Below are positions 1,513-56,924 of a stretch of DNA of 64,000 nt, piece after piece. A program made the position numbers and the translations under genes. The stretch is from contig CAUJLY010000003.1 of the NCBI GenBank assembly GCA_963281155.1, positions 4,030,001 through 4,094,000 on the forward strand, read 5' to 3'. Under the pieces are notes generated by a model. That model ran no database searches and had not been told where the DNA came from. It saw nothing but the letters and a program-made list of their open reading frames with translations. Positions within the stretch are counted from its first letter, which is position 1, and every line of letters starts with the position of its first letter. Source of the DNA: Rhabditophanes sp. KR3021. Taxonomy: Eukaryota > Nematoda > Chromadorea > Rhabditida > Alloionematidae.

Positions 1513-4471
1513 TTAAGCATTAATAATACGTAATGTATTGGTATGTCCTGATCCACGAGACCAGCCAGTTACTAGGATTACTGGATCCCCAGACTTGATA
1601 AACCCCTGAAAAGTACATTAATATAATAAATAGATAAATGACTAATTATGGTCTCAAAATGTGACCACAATTTAAAAATATTTGAACGTACTCTATCTTT
1701 TCCAATATCGACAGCAAAATCGAGTCTCTTGGTGACGTCATCAAGCCAGTTTTCAGTACGTTCCTCATCGTAGTAAAGAGGGAAGATTCCGCGGTATAAA
1801 TGAAGATGTGCAACTGTCTTTGGGTTGCGAGAGACAGTGATGATTGGCACAGGAGGCTTGTAGCGAGAGCACAAGTGAGCTGTTTTCCCAGAAGTAGTGA
1901 GGATGACAATAGCACTTGCTTTGCACGAAACGGCAGCAGATACAGCGGCAATAGCGATGGTATGTGTGGTCGGGGTTGGCTTGGGGGTCAAAGAGATTAG
2001 TTCATCAAAGAATCTGTTAGTCTGAATCGCTGCCTCGGCTTCCTTGCAGATGTAGTGCATTATCTTAAGAGCCTCAATGGGATAGTCTCCTTTGGCTGTT
2101 TCTCCTGATAACATTACACAATCAGCTCCATCCAAGACGGCATTGGCAACATCTGATCCTTCTGCGCGAGTAGGTCTTGGTTTTTTAACCATTGATTCGA
2201 GCATTTGAGTAGCACAGATTACAGGTTTTCCAGCTTTGTTGCATTTTGCAATAAGCATCTTCTGGGCTAGGAAAACCTTTTCAGCAGGAATTTCGATTCC
2301 AAGATCACCTGAAACAAATACACCATTATTTTCATATCAATAAATTCCTAAACTTTAACAAATGAATGTTACTTTATTATTTCTAAATAAACTTAGTAAG
2401 CTTTAGAAATTAAAGAAAGTTACTTTCTTGATTGATTAATGTACCAAATGTTTTATAATATCTCACAAAGATGGTATCTTAGGCCATTGTTAATATGCCT
2501 ATACATATTAATCAAAATGTTTCTGCCTTTAAGATATATTAATTGCTCGTTTAGTATTTTTAAACTTTATGCGTAAAGATTTTAGAACCAAATTTTCATT
2601 ATTTTATACTTCTTGCGTTCAAAATATGAACACTAGGTGCTAATCACATTACATGCGATGGTTTTTATTTTAATTATTTATTTTAGTTTGCAATAAGATC
2701 GCACTCATATTTGGATTTCTATTAAACTAATATCCGAAGAAAGCAGATAGCACGAATGTTATTGATACGACAATGTTACTGGTACTACAAATGTTACTAG
2801 TACTTGTACGTCAATTGAGTGGAAAACTCAGTCAATCTCATTTGGAGCCAACGCCAAAGAAGCCATTCAAAAATGGTAGTGGTTAGAAACATTCATTATC
2901 ATTACTATTTTCTTTTAGAACCAGGAGAGGCAGTTGATAATGCTGATCTTGTGGATGGAAACCATGTTGAGCTGATGAGTGTCGGTAGGTTAAAGACTCT
3001 CATATGATACGTTATTTGTTTAGGTGAACCTGAAGCAATATTGTCAAGTAGTGATGAAGATGAATCTTAGTGACCTGGGATTCCAGTTGTTCAAATCAGC
3101 TACATCACAGATTCTGCCTTCCGAAAAAGACGTATGCCTCGAAGAAACATGCTGAGAATGTTGAGGCAATTGTAATCGACTACTTCAGAGACGAAGTAGC
3201 AAATAGTGACTCAGGAAAGCCCTCTTATCAAATAGTCTCTTTGATGTTCCCAGAGAAGAACGATGAAGTTGCTAGGCTCCTCTTGCAAGACATTCTTGAC
3301 GCTGGTCAACGTTCTTTTCTAAGCCCAAAGATTAAAGAGGAGTCTATTGAATGTAATGTAATTTTCCCCCTATTTTCATTAATAAATTTTTAAAATCTAT
3401 TTCCTAATTATTTTTAGCTAACTACTTCTGTGAGCATAATTTCTAATTTTAATTAATATATGTTTAGGATACTCACCTCTGGCCACCATAACCCCGTCAC
3501 TGGCTTCGATGATTTCATCTGCGTTGATAACTCCCTCTTCGTTCTCAATCTTAGCAATAATTTTAATTCCTTTCCCAGCTTCGCCTAAGATCTTTCTTAT
3601 TTCATGGATCGCACCAGCATTTCTAATGAAGGACGCGAAGACGATATCTACTTGTTGTTCCACTCCCCATTGTAAATCGGATATATCCTTCTCCGACACA
3701 GCTGGAAGATCGACAGCAGTTCCTGGCAAATTGACTCCTTTTCTTGATCCGAGAGATCCGCCATTTTCGATGACACAAGTCACTCCATCTTCGTCAATAT
3801 GTTCAACAACTAAAGAGATAAGACCGTCGTCAACGAAAACTTTTCCATGAACCTTCAAGACCTTAGTGATATTCTTGTAATCAACGTAGAGAATATCTTC
3901 GTTTCCGATTTCGAGGTACTTCTCATCAGTAGAAAGCTTGATCTTGTTCCCCTTGATAAGCTCAACTTCAGCTGAGCCACCACCAGCCAACAAGCCTGTT
4001 CTAATTTCTGGTCCCTTTGTGTCCAAAGCAATTGCGACAATTCTGTGATCAGTGAAGCTGTCAGCAGCAGCACGGACGTTAGCGAGTGTGTCGGCGTGAT
4101 ATTCATGACTTCCGTGGCTAAAGTTCATGCGTGCAATGTTCATTCCGTTTTTGATCATGCTCTGGAGCATTTCCACAGATTTGCAGGCTGGCCCAATTGT
4201 GCAGATGATTCCGGTCTTACGGACTTGATGAGGTGGCTCGCGGATGTCCAATTGGCAGAGATGTTCCAAGTTAGTGGCAGCAATTGGCTTGGAAACATTT
4301 TGCTCTTGTCTAAAATAGATCCATTAAAATATGTAAATAAAACAAGATGTAATCAAAATATTAAACATTAAATTTAAGCTTATAGTTATGAGAAACCCTT
4401 AATACTTACTTCCCATAAGCAAAATCTTCCAATTGTTGCTTGAATTTTTCTTGTGCGTCAATAGAAACCAT
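1513..4471 (-). CDS. pyk: Pyruvate kinase
   Basis: Catalyses phosphoenolpyruvate plus ADP to pyruvate plus ATP in cytosolic glycolysis. Exons in transcript order are 4410-4471, 3477-4309, 1692-2308 and 1513-1605. They sum to 1605 nt (534 residues), the normal family length. Visible landmarks are the N-terminal GIICTIGPA and [11 protein letters not shown], the B domain around the third quarter of exon 2, the signature [11 protein letters not shown] with its catalytic lysine, then MLESM and [10 protein letters not shown] in exon 3. The protein ends in a C-terminal domain finishing RIINA. The start at 4471 gives a 20-codon first exon beginning [10 protein letters not shown], with a 3' splice site (TTACTTTCAG) only 9 nt upstream, suggesting trans-splicing. 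The intron 2309-3476 is about 1.2 kb, far longer than its neighbours, and carries a decayed gene on the opposite strand. An alternative first exon lies at 6313-6398. Confidence 0.95.
2800..3360 (+). pseudogene. Decayed intron-nested gene, antisense to pyruvate kinase
   Basis: Lies in pyruvate kinase intron 2 on the opposite strand. An open frame from about 2806 reads [16 protein letters not shown]. It continues across two small introns with good consensus ends (about 2874-2920 and 2986-3032) into an acidic stretch [14 protein letters not shown] and then stops. A second frame gives [11 protein letters not shown], then NSDSGKP and [16 protein letters not shown]. This last block aligns without gaps to the copies in the MAK16 intron (30440-30715) and the MEC-8 intron (62190-62624). 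Stops and frame breaks show decay. The presence of introns argues that it moved as DNA, not as a processed mRNA. I do not recognise the family. Confidence 0.6.
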
Positions 4472-39501: not shown

Positions 39502-41531
39502 ATGCAGTTTGTCAATAGACTAATAAAATTGCCTACTCATCTACTTACTATTGTTAAGCAAAATGACGAGACTAGAAAACTTCGTTTTTATTTTGAAATA
39601 TTTTACAAGATTGCTTTAATTGCCTTTGGGATTATTTTGGGATTTACCTTTTATTACCGAACTACCAATATATGGATGTTAAAGAATTTGGGTGATTCCT
39701 GGTTATCTAGACAGCAGGGATTAAGACCTATTGTTATTGGAGCCTTTCATAGAGCTGATAATGAAAAAAACAGTGAGGGAGATTATGCAGTTATCCAATA
39801 CATTGCAAACTCTTATGACACGCAAAAATTGTATTGTATTAGTAAAGACTTGATTAATGGTGAGCCATTAATAAGTACTGCCTTGATACAAAGAATCCAT
39901 GGTGGAAAACGAAACTTAAACGACGTTTGCAGTTGGAGTGGCCACTTAGCTGAATGCCAAATTGCCTCAGCAAATGTTGATTATATCACCCTATCGACAA
40001 GTCCTGATATAAAATTAGCCCAAAACGGAATGCAAGTTAACATTGAACGCCCAATCACTAAAAGCCCTAAAGAAAAGTTGGTTGTTTGTATTGCACCAAT
40101 GTATATTTATTCTGAAACAAGCATCTTGTTAACAGGAATAGAGTCATGGTTAGCTTTAGGTGCATCAAAGATTATTATTCCCATTCAGTCTGCCTCCAAT
40201 ACGGTAATGAATATATTGCGCAAATACGAAAAAGACGGTAATACAAATAAGTAGATTATCTATTAAATTTATTAAGCTACAAATGGGTGGAAGATATAAG
40301 TAAATGGGTATATTACAAAGTAACACCAATAAGAGTACGATGTTGTGCAACTGAAATAAATGAGTAATTAAATCAAGCTTAAACATGATGACACGTAAAG
40401 CCTCTCAGCTAATATTCATACTTTGAATGAGCATAGTACTAAAGAGCAAATGGCATACAGTCACTTCATACTTAAAATTATTAAACATTTAAATCCCTTT
40501 GATGCTTGTCAAAAATAGTGGGGTTTGAGTATATTATTCTAATACTAATATTTAAAATTCCAGGAAAAGTTATTTTGAGGCATTGGCCTAAATGGCCTGT
40601 CATGAATGATGTCAATCCAAATGGATTAGTTTTGTCCCGTGGAATTGAAGAATCTCACGTCAATTGTCTGCACTTTGCCAAACCATTCGCTGATTTGATT
40701 GCATTTTCCGATATTGACGACATTTTACTCCCAAAAAATCCACAAGATTCCAAACTAAGTTACAATTTAGACTTGCTATACAAATTATTTGGTGAACATC
40801 CTAATGCCGGAACTTTGTTATTTGAGCATAGAGATGTTCAGTTGGTTCTTCCAAAAGAATCCGATGCTAGTACATCTTTATCAAATTTCAACTTCAACTT
40901 CTTGCATGATACAAAGAGAAAGCAAAGTTGTCATGTATGGAGAATGAAAACAAGAGTCATTGTAAATGCTTCACGCGTTGATACCGTGCTAATGCATGAA
41001 AGTGGAATAAACAAATTTGGGTATGCTCAAGTTCGATTACCCTGTAGACAAGCACACTTCTATCATTTGAGACATTCATTTAGGAGCATATCTTCTGATT
41101 CAGACGAAATAGAAATGACAGAAATGGTTAAAATTTTAAATGGGTAAAGTGCTTTTTTATTATCAATAATTAATGTTTTTGTTGTATTTAGTCAATTTGC
41201 AAATCGTCTTTCGACATCATTATCTGGTATTGCCAACTTACCAATTTACCAATCATCTTTCTCATCCTTTCGCGATTTCGACGAATGTGTGATGGCAGTA
41301 ACGGATGAAAACTTTAGTCTAAAAGTATCAAGATGTATGACACCCTCGGCATGTTTCGTTCGTCATATGCCAACTAATATGAATTGCACAGCTACCCACA
41401 CTGATTTTTCGTTTGCAAGAATTGGAAATGATTTTATCTCAGCATCAGGAATTCAATCATTTATACCTTCTAGTGACTGTGATGCACCTGTACCTAAATT
41501 TAACTCTGGTAATTCATATTACTTGCCCTAA
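39502..41531 (+). CDS. GT92-family (DUF23) type II membrane glycosyltransferase
   Basis: Probable Golgi glycosyltransferase of the family that includes C. elegans GALT-1. Exons 39502-40237, 40564-41143 and 41192-41531 sum to 1656 nt (551 residues). A single transmembrane anchor lies at about residues 34-52 (ALIAFGIILGFTFYY), giving type II topology. The catalytic region shows GIESWLALGASKIIIPIQS. After the splice it reads LRHWPKWPV, a conserved SHVNCLHFAKPFADLIAFSD and the metal-binding DID of SDIDDILLP near residues 295-297. Later SCHVWRMKTRVIVN and HESGINKFG fit the family. Intron 1 is 326 nt and its 3' three quarters are a dispersed repeat shared with a dual oxidase intron. Substrate cannot be inferred. 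Confidence 0.88.
40318..40563 (-). repeat. Dispersed repeat copy 1, ending at the GT92 exon 2 splice site
   Basis: This 246 bp segment matches 51724-51968 with about five substitutions and one indel by my count. It begins AAGTAACACCAATAAGAGTA and ends TTTAAAATTCCAG. Homology stops exactly at the AG used to enter exon 2. In the second copy the segment lies directly upstream of the start codon of an antisense decayed gene, so it may be the 5' end of that element. Strand is given in that sense. There are no terminal inverted repeats. Confidence 0.9.
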
Positions 41532-44334: not shown

Positions 44335-47300
44335 ATGGCTTCTTTTGGAAGCTTGACCCGTCAAAGGCAGTCATTTTTACTAAACATATTCTCAGATATT
44401 AAATGCAAAATTGCGATTTTATTTCTATTGTGTCACATAATACCAGTAACTCAATGTAAGTCAATTTGTTTCAAAATATGCATGAGTAAAATTCCTTTCA
44501 ATTAAACGTCGTCATCTTAAATAGAGATTACTTTTTACACTTAAATAACTTACAATTACTACATTGTTTATATTTTGCACGTCACATCATTTGTTAACAA
44601 TTTGTATAGTGATTAAGATCCGTATGTAGCGAATTGAAGATTTTGTATTTTTATGAAAATTAAGCAAAATTGATGTCCTTTCTTATTTATGTTTACAGTC
44701 GTTTTTTAGACATAATACGACTGGAAATTGTTGTGTGTTCTTTATATAGTTGTAAATTTAGTTTGTTGATAAAGTAATGAATTTAGTTTGTTGTTAACAT
44801 GGTAAATTTAGTTTGCTGATAAGTAATAAAGATTTTTTATGATATTAACAGAAGGAGAGATATGTCGTTGAACTTAAATACCTTTGAATATTATCGAACA
44901 AATAATGGTGACATTTAAAGTTCGTATTTAAAAATAAATAGGAAAGGTTTTATTTGTGTATAAAAACGGATAATATTGTGTATAAAAAGATGTCATATTG
45001 TTTATAAGGAAAATTTTATAGAAAAAGAACAATTTAATTTGTGTGTTTATTTATTTAATATTTTTATTTCAGCTTTGAACAGGACGCACGAATTCCAAAG
45101 ATACGATGGATGGTATAATAATCTTGCAAATCCTGAATGGGGTAGTGTCAAATCAAGGCTACATCGGGTAATTTGAAAAATTAAATGGGATAAATTAAAA
45201 AGACAAGTGGTTATTTGTTAATTTTTCACCACATTGTGCTTTCAATTCAGCTAAAGTCAAACGGCGTGTTGCATTAGGTCGTTCTGCTCTTTCTTTTTGT
45301 CCGACACTAGATTTGTGATCAGCATCCCAGTCTTTTGATGGTATCGAAGCAGCTTCCTTGACTTTTACCGTTAACTCCCTTTTACGTTCGTTTCTGGTTT
45401 CTTTATTTTTCCGTTAGACTTCTCTTTCGATGCCATTGCTTTACCCATCTTTTCGATAGCCTCTTCTTCTACTTCAGACAGATCTTCGGCATCCTTCAAT
45501 CTTGCTGGATTCGCTACAGCTTTAATGTCTTTATTCTTATCCGAAACTGTTTTTTGTTCTTTTTATTCCAACCAACAGAATTAGCTCTTCTTTTATATAG
45601 TATTTTTGAAGCCATTTCTTCCTCTTCAGCCAACTCGACGTCTGTATCTAATCCATCAACTTCTATCCCGCGTGCCTTTCTTCTTGACATGTTAGCTTTT
45701 TCTTCACCATCGGTCCAATCAACTCAAATAAATGTCATTATCACCGTCATTCTCCTCTTTCAATGAATAAGCAAATCCGCTAACATCGGGACTATCTTGT
45801 ACGCCGGAAACAGATCACTTAACAGCGTTTTGCCATCTTTTCAGAATTACCATTTATAATGCCGAACTCTTTGATCTTGTTATTTTCTGAAAAAGATTGC
45901 TTAAAACATTATTTGCAACGTGTTAGTTAATAAAAAAATCGGCAAAATGCTGATATGCGCCAGCTCATGGTCAAAATATCATAACATATTATGTAACTTT
46001 CTTGAAGTATTTCAATCGACACAAACTTACTTCATTAATTTGTATACTGAAAAAAGATCTTATAAGGGTTGTTTCACAGGTATTTACAAACAATACGCTT
46101 ATTTAATGATATAAGAAACCTAATAATACAATAAGATACATACTATTAGATAATTACTTCTTAACTCTCTAATAGTTTACAGAGGTTTCTTGATGAGCTC
46201 GTAGTTAATAAATAGGTTAGCTGTTCGCCAACGGTGCAACACCTGAAGAGATTCATCAAATGCTGAGCTATTGATAGATAAATGTCATCTATCCCATTTA
46301 AAAGGGGTCAAATTAAATTATAATTCTTTATGCTAATATTAATCATTTATAGGACTCACTTGCAAACTACGAAGATGGTGTTTATAAAATAAATACTTCA
46401 CTTCCTTCGGCAAGAAAAATATCCGATATTGTTTTTAAAGGACCTTCTGGGATTCGAAGTAAAAGAAATTCAACGACAATGTTGGCCTTTTTTTCACAAG
46501 TAGTTGCATACGAAATAATGCAATCATCACAAACGGGTTGTCCTTTGGTACTTTATTCCTTGAAGAATATAACTAATTTTACTTTATTTTAGGGTAAATT
46601 ATAGAACAATCTAAAAATTCTATAAGAAATAAGAGTTCAAGAATATCGAAGTGTTATTTAAAAGAAGACAAAAATGAGATACAATATTATTAGGATGAAA
46701 TATACTTCGACGATAAGTGTATTTTGTGTCGAATAATCTCTGAGATTCCTTTACAATTTCTGGATGTTTCGGAAACATTACCTCATTAGATTGTCCTGAT
46801 GCGTAAATATTTGACAACACATTTTGTGGATTCATTATGACTGCGTACTTTATTTGCAGTAAATTTATCAGAGTGAAAAGCTACAATTTGCTTATTATTT
46901 TTACAGCTCTTCATAATTTGCGTCTTTTTTACGTTAACAGATGCTCCACAATATAAGATTCCTTTCATAAATTCTTCAAAAGATACTGACTTAACATCCA
47001 CATCAGTAAACAAGGAAACCAAGACGTAGGTAGATTGTTGTTCCTTGGCGTTAGCCTCCTTCAAAAATCCATCAAGTTTTCCTGCAACTTTACAGCAGGA
47101 AGTTTGCTTTCTTTTACAAAAGTATCCATAACCTCACTTTTTAAAATGGTATCTATGAGAGAGGTTTCATTGAATGTTGTACCGCAACTTTGACACTTGT
47201 GTTTGCCTTCTGCATTGATTTCTTGCCCTCCCGTGGCAATTCTTCCTAATGAAGCACTTGTATTGGAGACACTGATCATCCTTGGAGGTTTATTATCCAA

Positions 47301-50300
47301 TTATCAACTTAAGTGAGATATACATTACCTTTAAAAGATGAAGCTATTTTAAACATTTAGGAAAAATGCTTTATAAGTTTTTGTCTTCTTAAAACAAAAT
47401 TTTATCCAAATTTATTTTTAATATAGTTAAAAATGATTTTGCTATATAACGCCTACATTCTAGAAATGGAGCCAATCGAAGTGAATAAATGTGATCCCGT
47501 TTTTGATCCACAATGTGAAGGAAAAACACAAATTCCTTTTATGAGAACGGCAAGTTTTTACAAGACAGAAATAATCATTTTCCCCATTTAAGATCTATGA
47601 TACGAGTACTGGACACGGTTTAAACTCACCTAGAGAGCAAATAAATGAAAAAACGGTATTTTTTGGCTTTATTTGAACTTTTAACTTAAATTGTATTCGT
47701 ATAGTCATGGATAGATGCTAGTTTTTTATACTCGACAAGTGAACCATGGGTTGCTGCATTAAGATCATGGCATGATGGAATGTTAACTGAAAATGACCTG
47801 GTCCCAGGATATCCGCCCTTTAATAAAAAGATTATTCCATTTTTCAACCCAGCTCCGCCACAGATTCACAGACTAATGGGTAGGTATGATTGAATGTAAA
47901 TAAGTATTTATTTTAGATCCGGAACGGTTATTTACATTGGGTGATCCTCGTATCAATGAAAACCCGGGTTTGCTAACGTTTGGCTTGATTTTATTTAGAT
48001 GGCATAATGTTCAAGCAATCAAAATAGCTCACCAAAATACTGATTGGACGGATGAAGAAGTGTTTCAAGCAGCAAGGAGAAAAGTCATTGCCAGTTTGCA
48101 ATCTATCGTAATTTACGAATTTTTGCCCGAATTATTAGGAATTCCCAAAGATGAAATTCCAAAATACACCAAATACAACCCACACATACCACCGGGTGTT
48201 TCCCATTCATTTGCAACAGCTGCTTTTAGATTTCCTCATACAATTGTTCCTCCAGGAATGTTGTTCAGACAAAAAGGAACTGAAACTTCGAAATGTACTT
48301 TCAGAACGGAAATAGGCGGATATCCGGCTTTGAGATTATGTCAAAACTGGTGGAATGCGCAAGATATCGTTCAAGAATACACTATTGATGAAATTATTCT
48401 AGGAATGGCTTCGCAAGTTACAGAAGCTGAGGATACAGTTATAGTTGAAGATTTGAGAGATTTCATTTTTGGACCGATGCATTTTACTAGACTTGATGTA
48501 GTTTCATTGTCTATCATGAGAGGACGAGATAATGGAATCCCGTATTATAACAACATTAGAAAAAGTTTCGGTTTACCTACAAAAAGATGGGAAACTATAA
48601 ACCCTGAATTATTTGCCGCTGTAAGTTCGATAAAAAATATATATTACATAAAAAAATAAAGATGTTTGTTACAAGGATGAGTTAGTGGTAACACACAGAT
48701 AAGCTTGTACACGCTAGTGTAAAGACTCCAACAGATTATTAGACACTTTGTTATTACATAAAAGAAATTTTATTATAAAAAGAGGATTAATACATCTAAA
48801 TAGCAAATATAGTGGGTATCTTTAAGGTTATTTTAGTAGAAGACAATAAGTCTTAACAAACCTACTAATAAGTATTAACAATTATTAAAATGTAAAAACA
48901 AACACATAACATTCATGGTAAAATAAATAATGTTAATAATAATATTTAGAATCCAGAAATGTTCCAGAAATTGGAAGAATTATTTGTTGACATCGATTCA
49001 CTGGATGGATATGTAGGAGGAATGTTAGAGACAACTGAAGCTGGTGTTGGGGAACTATTCAAGATTATTATTCTTGATCAATTTATGAGATTAAGAGATG
49101 GTGATCGTTTTTGGTTTGAAAACGAACAAAACGGTATTTTCAATGCCACTGAAATAGAAGAAATAAGAAAGATAAAATTAAGTGATATTTTGAGAGCTGT
49201 TTCGGACATTGATCCAAGTGAAATACAAGATAATGTATTCCAATTTCAAGAAAACGATCCTTGCCCTCAGCCATTCCAAGTAAATACAACTGGTTTAGAA
49301 TCATGTGTTCCAATGATGAGATTTGATCATTTTACTGGTAACGAAGTCACCTATATTTTTTCAATAATAGTTTTGGCAATTGTTCCATTATTATGCATTG
49401 GAATTGCTAGGTACTTGATTATTAGAAGAAAAAAGAACGGAATCTCATTCATCGAAATGCCAAAGATTATTAAAAAAGAATCGGGACCGCAAATGTTTGA
49501 CAACATATCGGATTCAAACAGTTTGACGGATTCTTCCCTCTCAAGATTATATACTCAAGCTGATATTATAGAAGGCAAATTCAAGATGCCCGCAATAGAA
49601 TGGCTTTCAGATAATTTCTGCAGGAGTAAGTCACAAATTAATAATCACTACTTATCTATTGTTGTTTTGAATTTTAGGCGTAAACTTCCAACTTGATTTG
49701 TCAACCGGTGAAATTTCATTAAAAAAACCAAGAAGTAAAACAGTTCTGAGGAAGCTAGATCTCGGAAAGGCTTCCCAAGTATCATTCACAACAACTGATC
49801 CTAATAGTAAAAGTACATATGGTCCGTTTATTTTGATAGCAGTACCAAAAAATTATGATTTAGTCATTCGTCTTCACGATGACAAAGATTGCAGGAAATT
49901 TATGAAGTCAATTCATGATTGTCTCACTAAGCTGGACATTCCACTGACAGTTCGTTATGCTGAAAATGACATTATTCTAGAGACTGCTGAAACAAAAGAA
50001 AAAAGACAGAGAAAATTAGATCAGTTTTTCAGGGAAGCATACTCACGCACCTTTCAAGATGTTAAACTTTCGGACAAAAATGTTGATTATGATGAAAGTT
50101 TGTCACATTCAACATTAGGCATTAAGATATCTAAAGCTGAATTTGCGGATGCATTGGGCATGAAGGTGGATAATCATTTTGTGGAAAGATTATTTGCCTG
50201 TCTGACTAGCCAAAGTGAAGATGCCGTCAATTTCGATGAGTTCCTACAATTTCTTAAGAAATTTACCCATGGGACTCAAAAAGATAAGATGGCTATATTG

Positions 50301-53300
50301 TTTAAGATGTGTGACTACAACGGGGATGGAAAGGTCGACAGAAACGAATTTGTGACTTTTATCAGACAAATCATGGAACCTGCAGGAGTCAAAATGGATT
50401 TGCACGTCCAACAAGACATGCTCGAAGGTGTTTTATCAGATCTTGGAATTTCACAAAATTACTTAACTGAAGAAGACTTAGAAAAGATGTTCTCTCAATG
50501 CGATGGATCTATCAGGCCTGTTGGTGTCCACTTCAGAGGCGCCAAATTAGAAGTTAGTTGCGAAGATACAGCGTCCATAAGTTCATTCGCAGTTCCAGCA
50601 GATGAAAATCGTTCAAAATTATCCAAATCCAAAATTACGATGTTACTTTCCTTCTTAGAAACTTACAGACAACATATTGCTTGGCTTTTCATATTTTTCT
50701 GTGCAAATGGTCTATTTTTTCTGGAACGATTTTGGTACGGATTCCCCTTTTAACCTTTTCTAATCTCTTTTTCTTTTAGGTAAGTATGGATCACAATTAA
50801 TTAAACGAACAAAAATAAGTAAAAATTTATTAAACCAAAAGGGTGATATAGAAATTAGGTATATTTCAAGTAATATCCCATTTGCTTGATGTCACGGAAG
50901 GTAAAGACATTTAGCACTCTGTCCGAAACTGATCCAGCTGATAAGTTGGTTAATCCTTTGTGAGCTGCAATCAACGACCTTTCAATAATAGAGGCATATC
51001 GTCCTGACAATCCTTCCCAGCACAACACCTCGACGAATCCCTTTTTCATGAAATCTTCCCACATTTTGACAACACACCATCTTTACAAAGCATCACTCCT
51101 TTCCTCCAGTAACATTGTCTTCTCTTTCTATTTTCATCAAGCACAGGCGAAAAGCATTATATGTTATGATTCCCTTCAACAGGGTTTCGTGTAATTGAGT
51201 CAAGACACGCCCATTGTCATTTAGTCCCTCTCTTAACGATTCAGAATTCGCTTTACATTCTATCTTTCCTCCAAAATTAGTCGAGTCCTGACCAATCGAA
51301 ACAAGTTAGTCTTAGCATCATGTTTTGGCATCCCGAATGTCCGAACCAGACATGTAAGAGATGTTGTCGGTAACAGCAGGCATTTCTTCTTCATAGTCAC
51401 TGATGAAAACTACTTCTGGTTCTTGTTTAGGTTCTAAAGCAAATAATATATAACTTAACAATTATTTTAACTTACTAATTGGCTCCAAGACATCTTTCTT
51501 CTCCGCAACTTTTCCACACCCAATATTATTCTCTAAAAGGAAATGATTCATAAGTTAATAGACTATTTAACATACCTGTAGCAACAAAGGGCTTACTTCT
51601 CCCGAAAGTGACACTCCTGACAATTCTAGGTATCTTTATATTAGGCTTATCTAGCTAAATCATCGCTCAATCCACGATCTGTTTCCTTATCTCTTTTTCT
51701 TGAATTCTCAGCCATCTTAGATTAAGTAACACCAATAAGAGTACGATGTTGTGCAACTGAAATAAATGAGTAATTAAATCAAGCTTAAACATGATGACAC
51801 GTAAAGCCTCTCAGCTAACATTCATACTTTGAATGAGCATAGTACTAAAGAGCAAATGGCATGCAGTCACTTCATACTTAAAATTATTAAACATTTAAAT
51901 CCCTTTGATGCTTGTCAAAAATAGTCGAGTTTGGGTATATTATTCTAATACTAATATTTAAAATTCAGGTATTACAAATATGAGGTTGAACATCGTGATT
52001 TGCGTCGCGTACTTGGGACTGGAATTGCTATCACTCGTGGTGCTGCAGCTGCAATTTCATTCAATCTATCCTTAATTTTGTTGACAGTCTGTAGGAACAT
52101 CATAACATATGTACGCGAGACCCCGATCGGCGAGTACATTCCATTTGATGCTGCTATTGCATTCCACAGGATTGTAGGATTGACGGCTGGATTCTTTGCC
52201 GCAGTTCACACAATTGGGCATTTAATCAACTTTTATAATATTGCAACTCAATCTAAGGAAGGTTTGCAATGCCTATTTCAAGAAGCTGTATTCGGATCTA
52301 ATTTCGCTCCATCCATCAGTTATTGGTTCTTTGGCACCATCACCGGCTTAACTGGGATTTTGATTGTCATATTTATGTGCATCATCTATATATTTGCAAT
52401 CCCCTCATTCATGCGTCAAAATTACAATGCCTTCCGATTCACTCATTGGTTGAATATTATATTCTATGCCTTAACTTTATTGCACGGATTGCCTAAATTA
52501 CTAGATAAACCAAGTTTCTGGTATAAAGGTAAATTTACTAAACACAAAATTAAACACTTTAAAAAAATTCAACGTAATCGTCATACTTAATATCATCTAG
52601 AGTAGGATCGCAAGCTTCATTATTAATTTTTTAAAACTTGGTAGATTTCGTCAAGGTACAGCTTTCCGGAGTCACTGTTATTAGCTAATATTTAAAGAGA
52701 CTTTGTATCTTTGGCTTCTTGCCAGCCTTGGACGAAGTTGTTTTGGTTTTTTGAGTGGGAATGATTTTCCAGAGTTGCTAATTCTTCTTCAAAAATAAAA
52801 AACAGTTCATTTTCATTATTTGGTTGCAAGTAAATAGGTTCAATGCAAGATCACCATCTTTACCTTTGTCTAGGTTAGTAGCCTCGTCAGAATGTGCCAT
52901 CAGGCATCTCTCCCTTAAACTTAAAAAATAAATAATACATTTAAACTCAAATATTAATAAAAATGTTTCTTTAAGTTTTGGGACCACTTATTCTGTTCAT
53001 TATTGACAAAATTATTGGAATGAGGCAACAATACAAACAACTAAGAATTATCGAAGCTGCTCTTTTGCCTTCTGATATTATTTACATTCAATTCAAAAGA
53101 CCACACTCATTTAAGTTTAGATCTGGGCAATGGGTTAGAATCAGTTGCCCCCAAATAAGTTGCACATTTAATGAACATCACGCATTTTCTATGGCATCAG
53201 CTCCTCAGTCACCTTCATTAGAACTTTATATCAAGGCGGTCGGGCCATTTACATGGCAACTTCGTTCATTGATTCAGGATTGCCAAGCCAATGGCCTAAC

Positions 53301-54413: not shown

Positions 54414-56924
54414 ATGGCCAAATATTGTTTGAGTAAGTTTATTTTGCTCTGATTTAAATTCTAATAATTATTCTCTATTTAGATAAGCAGACAAAAAGAG
54501 TCGTGTGCCGTCAAAAGTACAAGATTGAGAAGAAAGTCAAGGATCATAATAGAAAGTTGAAGAAGGAAGCTAAACGCACCAAGAACACAAATATCAGAAA
54601 GGCAGCCAAGCCAGTCTCAGTTCCAAATGACTGCCCCTTCAAAGATGAGATGCTCATGGAAGCTGAGCAAAGACGTGAAGAAATCAAGTCAGAAATGATC
54701 AAGAAAAAAGCCCAAAAGAAGTTGGATAAGTCTAGAAAAGCCAAGAAAGTTGTTGAGGTTGGAGTTAAACGTAAGATGGGAGTGAAAGGAGACATCAATA
54801 CTGTTGCTCAACGTGCCGTCGTTACCGGAGAAGCCTATGATATTGGAGTTTTGAACGAACCAGAAGCAATGGAAGCTGAAGGCCCAGTTAAGGATCAATC
54901 TTACAAAAAGTACGCTTCAGAAGTCAAGAAAACTATCGAGACTGCTGATGTTATTTTGGAAATTCTCGATGCCCGTAATCCATTAGGATCAAGAAACATG
55001 AACTTGGAAAGAAGTATTTTGGCGTCTGGAAAGCGGTTGGTTCTCGTTTTGAACAAAATCGACTTAATTCCTAAGGAAAATGCGGCAGCTTGGTTAATTT
55101 ATTTACGTAAAATTGCCCCAACCATCGCTTTCAAGGCGTCCACTCAAGAACAAGTAAGAAACGTTGGAAGAACTCGTTCCTCAAATTTGTCTATCAGCAC
55201 ATCTAAGTGTATTGGAGCCGACTTGATCATGAAATTATTGGGTAACTATTGTAGAAACAATGGAGTAAAGCAAAGTATTCGCGTTGGAGTTATTGGATAT
55301 CCAAATGTTGGAAAGAGTAGTGTGATTAATAGTTTGAAGAGAAAGAAGTCTTGCCAAGTCGGGAACACTCCAGGTACTTGTTTCCTCTTAATGACCTTAA
55401 CTAATTTTATTTCGTTTTAGGTAATTTAAAAACAGGAAAATATTAAAAGCAGACAAATATTATTCGATGCTATTATTTAAATTTGCATCCATGAGTACAA
55501 TATTTCAAAGACTCTTTACGATGGTAGGGTGTTTCGTGAACATAACTGCATTAGATTTACCCGATGAATCATTGTTTGCCATTACATTCGGGGATCCATA
55601 ATAACTGAGTATTCGAGGCGAGTCCTTTAACTTAAGATAAGCCACCAATATCGACTGCCATCATTTTTCGTTTGTATCTCAAGCTATCCAAATCACGTTG
55701 TCCTTAGTATTCAAAAGAATATTGACGTTTGACATCTTGTTGATGCTTATCAAGTCCCCTTTCCACATTTCCAGAAACACCTCAGTGAAGACTGACTTCA
55801 TAAACTGATAAAACATAGCAACTTAAGATTCATATGTAGAGGCAGATCAAGCAAGACATAAACACTTACTTTTTGCCACAACTCAACATGAGACAACTTC
55901 TTTTCTTCCTCAAAAGTCTTGCCAACTCACTTCTTAATTTTGAGCAAACTTTCTTCTTTAAATAGCATGCCAACTTGGAATATGATTGAATGTGGTGGTG
56001 CTTGAAAACTTTGACACTAGGTGATTGAGTATTTGGATTTGGTGTCATTGTGTAGACAGTAAAATAGACTAAATGTATTTAAAATGAACACATATAATGA
56101 AGTATTTTGCAGGTATGACTAGACACATCCAAGAAGTCGAGCTTGACAAAAACATCAAGTTAATTGATTCCCCTGGGGTTGTCATGGATTTGGGAAAAGA
56201 TTTAGATACCGTGGAGCTGATCCTCAAGAATGCTGTTTCTGTTGAAAATGTCGAAGACCCAGAACTAGTCATTACAGCCATTCTCCGTAGATGTTCTACT
56301 CGTACCTTAATGATCCATTACAAGATCCCCGAATTCACTACACAAATCCAATTCTTAGATATGATTGCTAGAAAGATTGGGCGTATGGGAAAGAGCGGAA
56401 TCACTGACAAGAAAGCTGCCGCCAAGTTCGTTCTCCACGAATGGCATGATGGTAAATTACCTTATCACACTCTTCCTCCAGAGACCAACTTGGCCATCAC
56501 CAAGGAAAACGAGATTTGCTCTTCTGAACTTTTGACGACCATGTCTAAAGAATTTAGCTTGGATGAAATCTGTGAAGAGCAAATCAAGGCTGTTGAAGCT
56601 ATGGATGAGACCACGGGATTGTCGTGTGTGTATGATCCTTCTAAGAAACCAATTCAAGAGGAGAGCATGGAAACTGATGATGTCGCAGATGGAAAGAAAT
56701 TCTCCGTTACTGCTGGAGTAAACACCAAACAAATAAAACACAAGTCCACTGTCAATTTGCCCAAGAAATCAGCTATTAAGAACCCAACTACTTTCAAGCA
56801 TGATGGTAATGTTCAGTTGAACAAAACAATCAACAAGGCTGCAAAGAAGGTTAAAAAGCAAACAGTCAAACAATCCAAAAGAGTAGAAAAGATTGCTGAT
56901 TCCATTAACAATTTCTCTATGTAA
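54414..56924 (+). CDS. nst-1: Nucleostemin-family nucleolar GTPase (GNL3-like)
   Basis: Circularly permuted GTPase acting in nucleolar ribosome assembly and cell growth. Exons 54414-54432, 54483-55373 and 56113-56924 sum to 1722 nt (573 residues). A basic N-terminus (VVCRQKYKIEKKVKDHNRK) and a coiled, lysine-rich stretch precede the G domain. G4 (VLNKIDLIP, near residue 195) comes before G1 (GYPNVGKSS, near 275) and G3 (DSPG, near 322), the permuted order of this family. NTPGMTRHIQEVELDKNIKL spans the exon 2/3 junction, confirming the splice. The C-terminus is basic. Intron 2 (55374-56112) is a tandem of an original 47 nt intron and an inserted block. GNL3 versus GNL3L cannot be settled by eye. 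Confidence 0.93.
55421..56112. mobile_element. Introner-like element in nucleostemin intron 2
   Basis: Exon 2 ends at 55373 and is followed by an intact 47 nt intron, 55374-55420, ending TTTCGTTTTAG. The next base begins GTAATTT. The foreign block ends AAGTATTTTGCAG at 56112, and the host resumes GTATGACTAGAC in frame. Deleting the block rebuilds TTTTAG|GTATGAC. As in dual oxidase intron 9, AGGT is present at both junctions. It carries the antisense relic at 55480-56048. Confidence 0.7.
55480..56048 (-). pseudogene. Decayed antisense gene in nucleostemin intron 2
   Basis: A minus-strand ATG at 56048 opens MTPNPNTQSPSVKVFKHHHI, followed by a basic segment. A small intron with consensus ends (GTAAGTG to TTTTATCAG, about 55808-55872) joins HVELWQK to FMKSVFTEVFLEMWKGD. 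After stops and slips the C-terminal part reads SVIMDP, NVMANNDSSG and SNAVMFTKHPTIVKSL. This last part is homologous to the dual oxidase intron 3 copy. Confidence 0.6.

What the first reader, a model, noticed from the sequence alone, without database searches (positions are those of the whole stretch)
50735..51968. Back-to-back 3' and 5' splice sites: a 1.2 kb self-bounded block inserted exactly at a 3' splice junction of the dual oxidase
Seen directly: after exon 9 a complete 45 nt intron ends CTTTTAG and is followed at once by GTAAGTATGG. The next 1189 bp end AAAATTCAG, and the host frame resumes with GTATTAC. Excising 50780-51968 leaves a perfect ancestral short intron. So the block carries its own GT and AG, lies in a zero-length exon position, and contains an antisense gene relic. 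The AG|GTAAGT junction is also the consensus for recursive splicing. Inference: this is a gene-bearing introner-like element that entered at AG|GT, with AGGT present at both ends.
Basis: partly seen in the sequence, partly recalled or inferred. Interest (0 to 1): 0.93.

Follow-up and report, generated by a model that had tools for sequence, protein, structure and literature searches.

The report
Intron-making jumping gene encoding a nuclease
A 1.2 kb intron in an animal's dual oxidase gene looks like a decayed copy of a mobile element that becomes an intron where it lands and carries, on the opposite strand, a gene for a DNA-cutting enzyme, with many relatives in other genes of the same genome.

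Summary
The sequence observation is right: 50735-50779 is a complete 45-nt GT..AG unit, followed at once by GTAAGTATGG, and the host frame resumes after 51968. The element reading is also right and goes further than proposed. The antisense relic belongs to a family whose longer copies encode GIY-YIG nuclease domains. Relatives lie in many unrelated genes, mostly antisense to the host, and their ends are the intron ends (GT on the left; branch-site-like TACTAAC and AG on the right). Two copies show 15- and 12-nt target-site duplications.

The 'ancestral 45-nt intron' is not supported. A DUOX paralog 57 kb away reads through this point without an intron, and the same cap with its AG|GTAAGTATGG junction precedes related elements in two other genes. 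The whole 1,234 nt is therefore probably the gained intron, and the back-to-back splice sites belong to the element.

Best reading: a gene-bearing, probably self-mobilising introner family in an animal, some members carrying a built-in recursive-splicing site. Splicing and nuclease action are inferred; no RNA data or sister species were available. My paper searches found no equivalent; the nearest are introners without such a gene and mirusvirus 'shintrons'.

The parts
50735..51968 (+). Whole element-derived intron of the dual oxidase gene (1,234 nt), antisense to the element's gene
   Evidence: Joined host frame open; DUOX paralog without intron
50735..50779 (+). Cap: complete 45-nt mini-intron GTACGG...CTTTTAG, with a branch-site-like TTCTAAT and a pyrimidine tract
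   Evidence: Homologous caps at L057 and L059: scores 33 and 23.5, best of 83 pseudo-introns 14; alignment
50778..50789 (+). Back-to-back junction AG|GTAAGTATGG, a recursive-splice-site form
   Evidence: Same letters in three copies in three host genes
50780..51968 (+). Body of the element, from its strong donor to its acceptor
50858..51064 (-). Later half of the first GIY-YIG domain of the antisense gene (MWEDFMKKGF...IIERSLIAAHKGLTNLS...)
   Evidence: 54 matches in the own genome, itself included; homologous longer frames score for PF01541
51647..51715 (-). Start of the broken antisense gene: ATG and 22 codons, then TAA
   Evidence: Read; similar ATG regions in L014 and L016
51949..51968 (+). 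Right end: branch-site-like TACTAAT followed by AAAATTCAG
40238..40563 (+). Second copy, uncapped and internally deleted, as a 326-nt intron of a glycosyltransferase family 92 gene
   Evidence: 97.9% identity over 243 nt to 51724-51966; GT92 Pfam domain spans the junction
52529..52975 (+). Second long DUOX intron, holding another weak antisense GIY-YIG-like piece (52796-52927)
   Evidence: tblastn E 3e-5, 39% identity over 44 residues; boundaries read by eye
2309..3476 (-). Family copy as a 1,168-nt intron of a pyruvate kinase gene; the element's gene runs on + (3124-3339)
   Evidence: pyruvate kinase domain spans the junction
55374..56112 (+). Capped, probably related 739-nt intron of a GNL3-like GTPase gene (cap 55374-55420)
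   Evidence: MMR_HSR1 domain spans the junction

Best explanation
The block is a decayed, capped copy of a gene-bearing introner family. The element inserts into coding exons, often at AG|GT-like sites, through a staggered cut that leaves a duplication of about 12-15 nt. Its left end supplies a 5' splice signal and its right end a branch site, and the target duplication can supply the AG. The host spliceosome removes the insertion as a new intron, so the host protein stays intact. On the opposite strand the family encodes a protein with two GIY-YIG-like nuclease domains around a C2H2-like finger; I infer that this protein makes the cut. Some subfamilies carry a cap, a 41-48 nt mini-intron ending exactly at the body's donor, which would be removed in two steps (recursive splicing) or together with the body. 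Shown: the family, its positions in genes, its ends, the nuclease homology, a paralog without the intron, cap homology, purifying selection. Inferred: actual splicing, recursion, nuclease-driven mobility.
For: Own-genome matches: 54 for the antisense peptide, 40 for the right end, 24 for the rest (the block itself and multiple pieces of one copy included). PF01541 over its cut-off in relatives and at 14 loci. Longest open frame on the host-sense strand in 29 of 30 right flanks and 27 of 31 left flanks. Host frame open through the junction at 18 of 19 placed loci and 5 of 5 more. A Pfam domain spans the junction in 5 of 10 (one below cut-off) and 4 of 5 joined proteins (one, MIR, by three residues). 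TSDs of 15 and 12 nt; permutation p=0.001 over 21 loci. DUOX paralog without the intron; 8 of 8 GT92 hits outside the window read across; one distant OATP-like hit reads across. Cap homology. pN below pS in 77 of 78 and 84 of 84 pairs.
Against: No RNA evidence. No clear TSD at the DUOX and GT92 copies; only 2 of 21 loci stand out alone. The finger, the second GIY-YIG and the LEM-3 matches are below Pfam cut-offs. The MFS junction found no paralog. Mosaic copies show that conversion or template switching also shapes the family. The 54, 40 and 24 matches were not all examined. pN/pS pairs are not independent and stop-bearing alignments were left out.
Confidence: 0.8

Rival explanations
1. One reading: the element entered exactly at the 3' splice junction (AG|GT) of an ancestral 45-nt DUOX intron.
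For: The letters fit: 45-nt GT..AG, then GTAAGT. Insertion beside existing short introns is seen on the right side of five copies (L011, L028, L030, L035; L075).
Against: The DUOX paralog has no intron there. The cap and junction recur in two other genes.
Confidence: 0.07
2. RNA route: spliced intron RNA is put back by reverse splicing and then copied into DNA, as proposed for fungal introners.
For: Homology runs from GT to AG; the 51k and 40k copies share their right end up to the AG and show no TSD.
Against: TSDs of 15 and 12 nt at two copies are not expected. No reverse transcriptase domain in the one 509-codon frame scanned.
Confidence: 0.12
3. Ordinary transposon that happens to lie in introns, or a nested cellular gene family spread by duplication; the splice-site coincidence is secondary.
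For: Open frames of up to 509 codons and purifying selection.
Against: Unrelated hosts, homology ending at splice sites, orientation bias, TSDs, paralogs without introns.
Confidence: 0.05
4. Copy-to-copy conversion: the nuclease mainly makes resident introners copy from one another (homing between introners), rather than making new insertions.
For: The 51k/40k pair is 97.9% identical over 243 nt but has different left ends; C6_4360400/C6_5006100 are 97.7% and 93.2% identical over adjoining stretches, while C6_5006100's left end matches C4_5524900 at 93.5% over 139 nt.
Against: It does not by itself explain how copies reached unrelated genes, nor the TSDs. Template switching would look alike.
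Confidence: 0.3

Closest known systems
Introners / introner-like elements (PMC9860276; abstract and passages seen)
   Same: Repeated similar introns at non-homologous gene positions, splice sites taken from element or TSD, a paralog without the intron, some GC donors.
   Different: Introners are described there as coming from nonautonomous transposons, with 3-9 bp TSDs in earlier families and median family lengths of 30-654 nt. Here many copies are about 0.6-2 kb and carry a nuclease gene; TSDs are 12-15 nt at the two clear copies.
Mirusvirus shintrons, spliceosomal homing introns (PMC12768974; passages seen)
   Same: Spliceosomal introns that carry GIY-YIG endonuclease genes.
   Different: Those are in giant-virus genomes and tied to particular genes. 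Here the copies are dispersed in an animal genome, antisense to the host, with TSDs at two copies.
Recursive splice sites / ratchet points (PMC8605326 and PMC5126111; search listing only)
   Same: Juxtaposed acceptor and donor.
   Different: Here the site is carried by a mobile element and lies about 45 nt from the 5' end of a roughly 0.5-1.3 kb intron, not deep in a very long one.
Stwintrons (PMC12403724; abstract and outline seen)
   Same: Sequence-similar double introns that spread to new positions.
   Different: In [D1,2] stwintrons the inner intron splits the outer donor between its first two bases; here the cap ends just before a complete donor.
Penelope-like retroelements with GIY-YIG (PMC3846280; search listing only)
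   Same: Eukaryotic mobile element with a GIY-YIG nuclease.
   Different: Those are retroelements with a reverse transcriptase; none was found in the one 509-codon frame scanned.

Membership tests
Introner | Sequence-similar introns at non-homologous positions in many genes | tested here: met
Introner | Insertion created the intron (site without intron known) | tested here: met
   DUOX paralog, 8 of 8 GT92 hits, one OATP-like hit; none for the MFS gene; no sister species
Introner | Element is spliced out of mRNA | not testable with these tools
   Only open host frames across junctions
Introner | TSD or other sign of transposition | tested here: met
   15 and 12 nt at two of 21 loci; p=0.001 overall; none clear at DUOX or GT92. 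No inverted repeat joins the ends of the DUOX block
GIY-YIG nuclease | Pfam GIY-YIG over cut-off | tested here: met
   L006 25.4 and L002 26.1 bits, cut-off 22.6; 14 loci. The second domain (PF19239, 19.2, cut-off 21.4) and LEM-3_GIY-YIG (22.8, cut-off 27) are below
GIY-YIG nuclease | Cuts DNA | not testable with these tools
   Conserved residues judged by eye from recall only
Shintron | Homing endonuclease gene in a spliceosomal intron | tested here: met
   As a gene content only
Shintron | Occurs at one target gene, moving by homing to intron-free alleles | tested here: not met
   Copies lie in many unrelated genes; homing to alleles was not testable
Recursive splice site | Acceptor immediately followed by donor | tested here: met
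Recursive splice site | Stepwise removal seen in RNA | not testable with these tools
   No reads available
[D1,2] stwintron | Inner intron between donor bases 1 and 2 | tested here: not met
   Cap is followed by a complete GTAAGT
Penelope-like element | Reverse transcriptase linked to GIY-YIG | tested here: not met
   No such Pfam hit in the 509-codon frame L006; only 5 family or flank frames were scanned

The most novel reading that the evidence does not exclude
This is a self-sufficient introner in an animal: a new kind of mobile element whose only recognisable enzyme is a tandem GIY-YIG nuclease, with neither a known transposase nor a reverse transcriptase. It cuts coding DNA with a stagger of about 12-15 nt, builds introns, converts resident copies, and in some subfamilies carries a recursive-splicing cap that hides it from the host mRNA.
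Probability: 0.5. Interest if true: 0.96.

Novelty: new variant of a known kind. Interest (0 to 1): 0.88.

Why it matters
Where introns come from is a long-standing question, and what mobilises introners is largely unknown. A family that carries its own nuclease gene, with copies at many stages of decay in one 45 Mb genome, would make the birth of introns directly testable. It would also show a mobile element carrying a ready-made two-step splicing unit, and nuclease-bearing spliceosomal introns outside the viruses where they were first described.

Tried and rejected
Considered and rejected or weakened: an ancestral 45-nt intron; a chance AG|GTAAGT; a nested cellular gene. An apparent TSD outside the cap at C6_5006100 (CATCG.AG) was dropped, because AATTCAT also belongs to the end of C6_4360400. 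An 11-nt repeat AAAATTCAGGT around the capped L059 copy is ambiguous, because AAAATTCAG also ends the DUOX copy. C4_5524900's cap begins GG, so its first donor is unclear. A scan of viral contigs with the 509-aa frame matched 5 pattern stretches, none a relative. A solved-structure search gave only hits with E of 0.13 or more, two of the three to GIY-YIG nucleases. The species could not be named; 'animal, probably nematode' rests on my recall of gene families and intron style. No structure was predicted.

Paper searches behind 'no equivalent in print' (open-licence PMC library only).

Two-ended sites were read by eye. Of 21 typed, two were not placed (one wrongly typed right end, one without a left end); 18 of the other 19 stayed open, and C4_5972400 did not, because a short intron follows it. 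One search used those 18 plus the GNL3-like, pyruvate kinase and C1_5080900 loci. One search added L057, L059 and the ryanodine-receptor-like locus and repeated the GNL3-like and pyruvate kinase ones.

Full report
Check of the observation. The stated letters are present. The exon ends at 50734; 50735-50779 is GTACGG...CTTTTAG (45 nt); 50780 begins GTAAGTATGG; AAAATTCAG ends at 51968 and the exon resumes GTATTAC. Joining the flanks gives ...FLERF^WYYKYEVEHRD..., open on both sides. A pyrimidine-rich AG|GTAAGT occurs once in the window, and 0 of 100 dinucleotide shuffles contain it.

A family. The window holds a second copy of the block's right end: 51724-51966 is 97.9% identical to 40318-40560, where it forms most of a 326-nt intron (40238-40563) in a glycosyltransferase-92 gene. 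The antisense peptide 51064-50858 has 54 matches in the window's own genome (44.8 Mb, 6 contigs), itself included. The right end has 40 DNA matches and the rest of the body 24, the block itself included in each and some copies matched in more than one piece. The tool calls such counts lower bounds. I examined 50 merged segments, the window among them, plus L075 and L076.

The gene. A relative on C1 (L006) has a 509-codon frame without a stop, inside a 2,022-nt intron between exons with MIR and RYDR_ITPR domains. It scores 25.4 bits against GIY-YIG PF01541 (cut-off 22.6); L002 scores 26.1. A second GIY-YIG-like domain (PF19239, 19.2 bits, cut-off 21.4), C2H2-finger matches and the LEM-3_GIY-YIG match of L002 (22.8, cut-off 27) are all below their cut-offs. 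By my reading both domains keep the residues expected of GIY-YIG nucleases from recall. PF01541 finds 14 loci over its cut-off in this genome; the best one may be an ordinary cellular gene. Between copies pN is below pS in 77 of 78 pairs (13 copies, first domain) and 84 of 84 pairs (14 copies, second domain); pairs are not independent, alignments with stops were left out, and pairs sharing under 40 codons were not counted. The window copy itself is dead: an early stop, and no match to the later part of the protein.

The ends are splice sites. In host-sense orientation 30 right ends were listed; most run ...TTATTAAA...TACTAAC-like...AG and then an open exon, L024 being a clear exception. Thirty-one left ends were listed; most run coding exon | GT...TTTATTAAA. 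Some are unclear by eye (C3_3382770, C5_378300, C1_4736069), and three use a GC donor (C3_3792366, C4_4271053, C4_4429809). The longest open frame is on the host-sense strand in 29 of 30 right flanks and 27 of 31 left flanks, so the element's gene is mostly antisense to its host. Of 19 placed two-ended insertions, 18 leave a host frame open through the junction, and so do 5 of 5 checked later (the GNL3-like and pyruvate kinase loci among them were also). Of 10 joined host proteins scanned, one Pfam domain spans the junction in 5 (MutS_V, Glyco_transf_92, OATP, MFS_1_like, and GH2_N below its cut-off); 2 have hits on one side only and 3, the DUOX piece among them, have none. Of 5 scanned, it does so in 4 (pyridoxal decarboxylase, GTPase, pyruvate kinase, and MIR by three residues), and L059 has no hit.

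Target duplications. C2_5297764 has TCTTTTCATCACCAG on both sides and C1_6488179 has CGTTCAAAGGTT. Across 21 loci the left-right similarity, ignoring AG|GT, exceeds shuffled pairings (p=0.001), but only these two stand out alone. The DUOX and GT92 copies show none. No inverted repeat joins the ends of the DUOX block.

No ancestral 45-nt intron. The DUOX paralog at C3:4139136-4139432 matches all 99 residues across the junction at 85% identity in one 573-codon open frame; its DNA reads GATTTTGGTTCTTTAAATATG with no intron. For GT92, all 8 hits outside the window (26-34% identity) read across the insertion point without a stop. One distant OATP-like hit (36%, residues 3-44) reads across its junction at residue 32; the MFS search found only the gene's own exons. 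Loss of introns from paralogs is not excluded.

The cap belongs to the element. L057, in a pyridoxal-dependent decarboxylase gene, and L059, in a gene that looks ankyrin-like to me but has no Pfam hit, carry the same unit: exon | GTA...TTTTCTAATCTCTTTT...TTTTAG | GTAAGTATGGATCACAAT. The DUOX cap scores 33 and 23.5 against these two; the best of 83 pseudo-introns scores 14. The caps of C6_5006100 and C4_5524900 score 33 with each other. A third, looser group holds C4_3496321, the GNL3-like intron at 55374 and 46548; there one pseudo-intron scores as high as one of the three pairs. A genome search with the DUOX left end found these three loci only. C1_4282454 looks like two elements back to back. 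Five copies have a short intron on the right instead (L011, L028, L030, L035; L075), so insertion beside existing introns also happens, on that side.

Mosaics. The 51k and 40k copies are 97.9% identical over 243 nt on the right, yet one is capped and the other is not. C6_4360400 and C6_5006100 are 93.2% identical over a right-hand 280-nt match and 97.7% over an adjoining 215 nt but do not match at the left end, where C6_5006100 matches C4_5524900 at 93.5% over 139 nt. Copies therefore exchange parts, by conversion or template switching.

How it probably works. The antisense gene makes a tandem nuclease; staggered nicks open an exon; a copy is laid in and the overhangs are filled, which leaves the duplication; the left end and the branch site turn the insert into an intron. 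In capped copies the first donor (GTACGG in DUOX) can be joined to 50780, restoring the strong GTAAGTATGG, or skipped over. The insertion chemistry, the splicing and the recursion are inferred, not shown.

Known things. Introners are described as deriving from nonautonomous transposons, with 3-9 bp duplications in previously characterised families, and among animals and land plants in two animal groups only (PMC9860276, abstract and passages). Mirusvirus shintrons put GIY-YIG genes into spliceosomal introns, said there not to have been observed before (PMC12768974, passages). Stwintrons are mobile double introns of another geometry (PMC12403724, abstract and outline). A survey of nematode intron gain did not name such elements in the 12 of 42 passages I saw (PMC9169325). 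My searches showed no gene-bearing introner in an animal in their listings; most subscription papers and preprints are not in that library.

Noticed in passing
window 46548-46592: Another cap-like 45-nt GT..TTTTAG unit directly followed by GGTAAATT, near an antisense frame (46620-47133); a 99-nt stretch there is 71% identical to one in the GNL3-like intron at 55514-55611. The host frame was not checked.
   Followed up: partly
window 48621-48949: A 329-nt DUOX intron whose right part (TTAACAATTATTAAAA...AATATTTAG) resembles the family's right end; read by eye only.
   Followed up: no
L075 (C1:5080900-5082100): A short copy inserted at the 5' splice site of an existing intron, with CCGGTAA-like sequence at both ends; here the old intron's AG would serve as acceptor.
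   Followed up: partly
C4_3496321, C4_4271053, C4_4429809, C3_3792366: Three family introns appear to use GC instead of GT donors, and at C4_3496321 two elements flank an exon of about 50 nt.
   Followed up: no
G000 contigs C1-C6: Matches are few on the largest contig C6 (11.2 Mb): 2 of 54 for the peptide and 1 of 40 for the right end. It may be a sex chromosome or may differ in activity; not tested.
   Followed up: no
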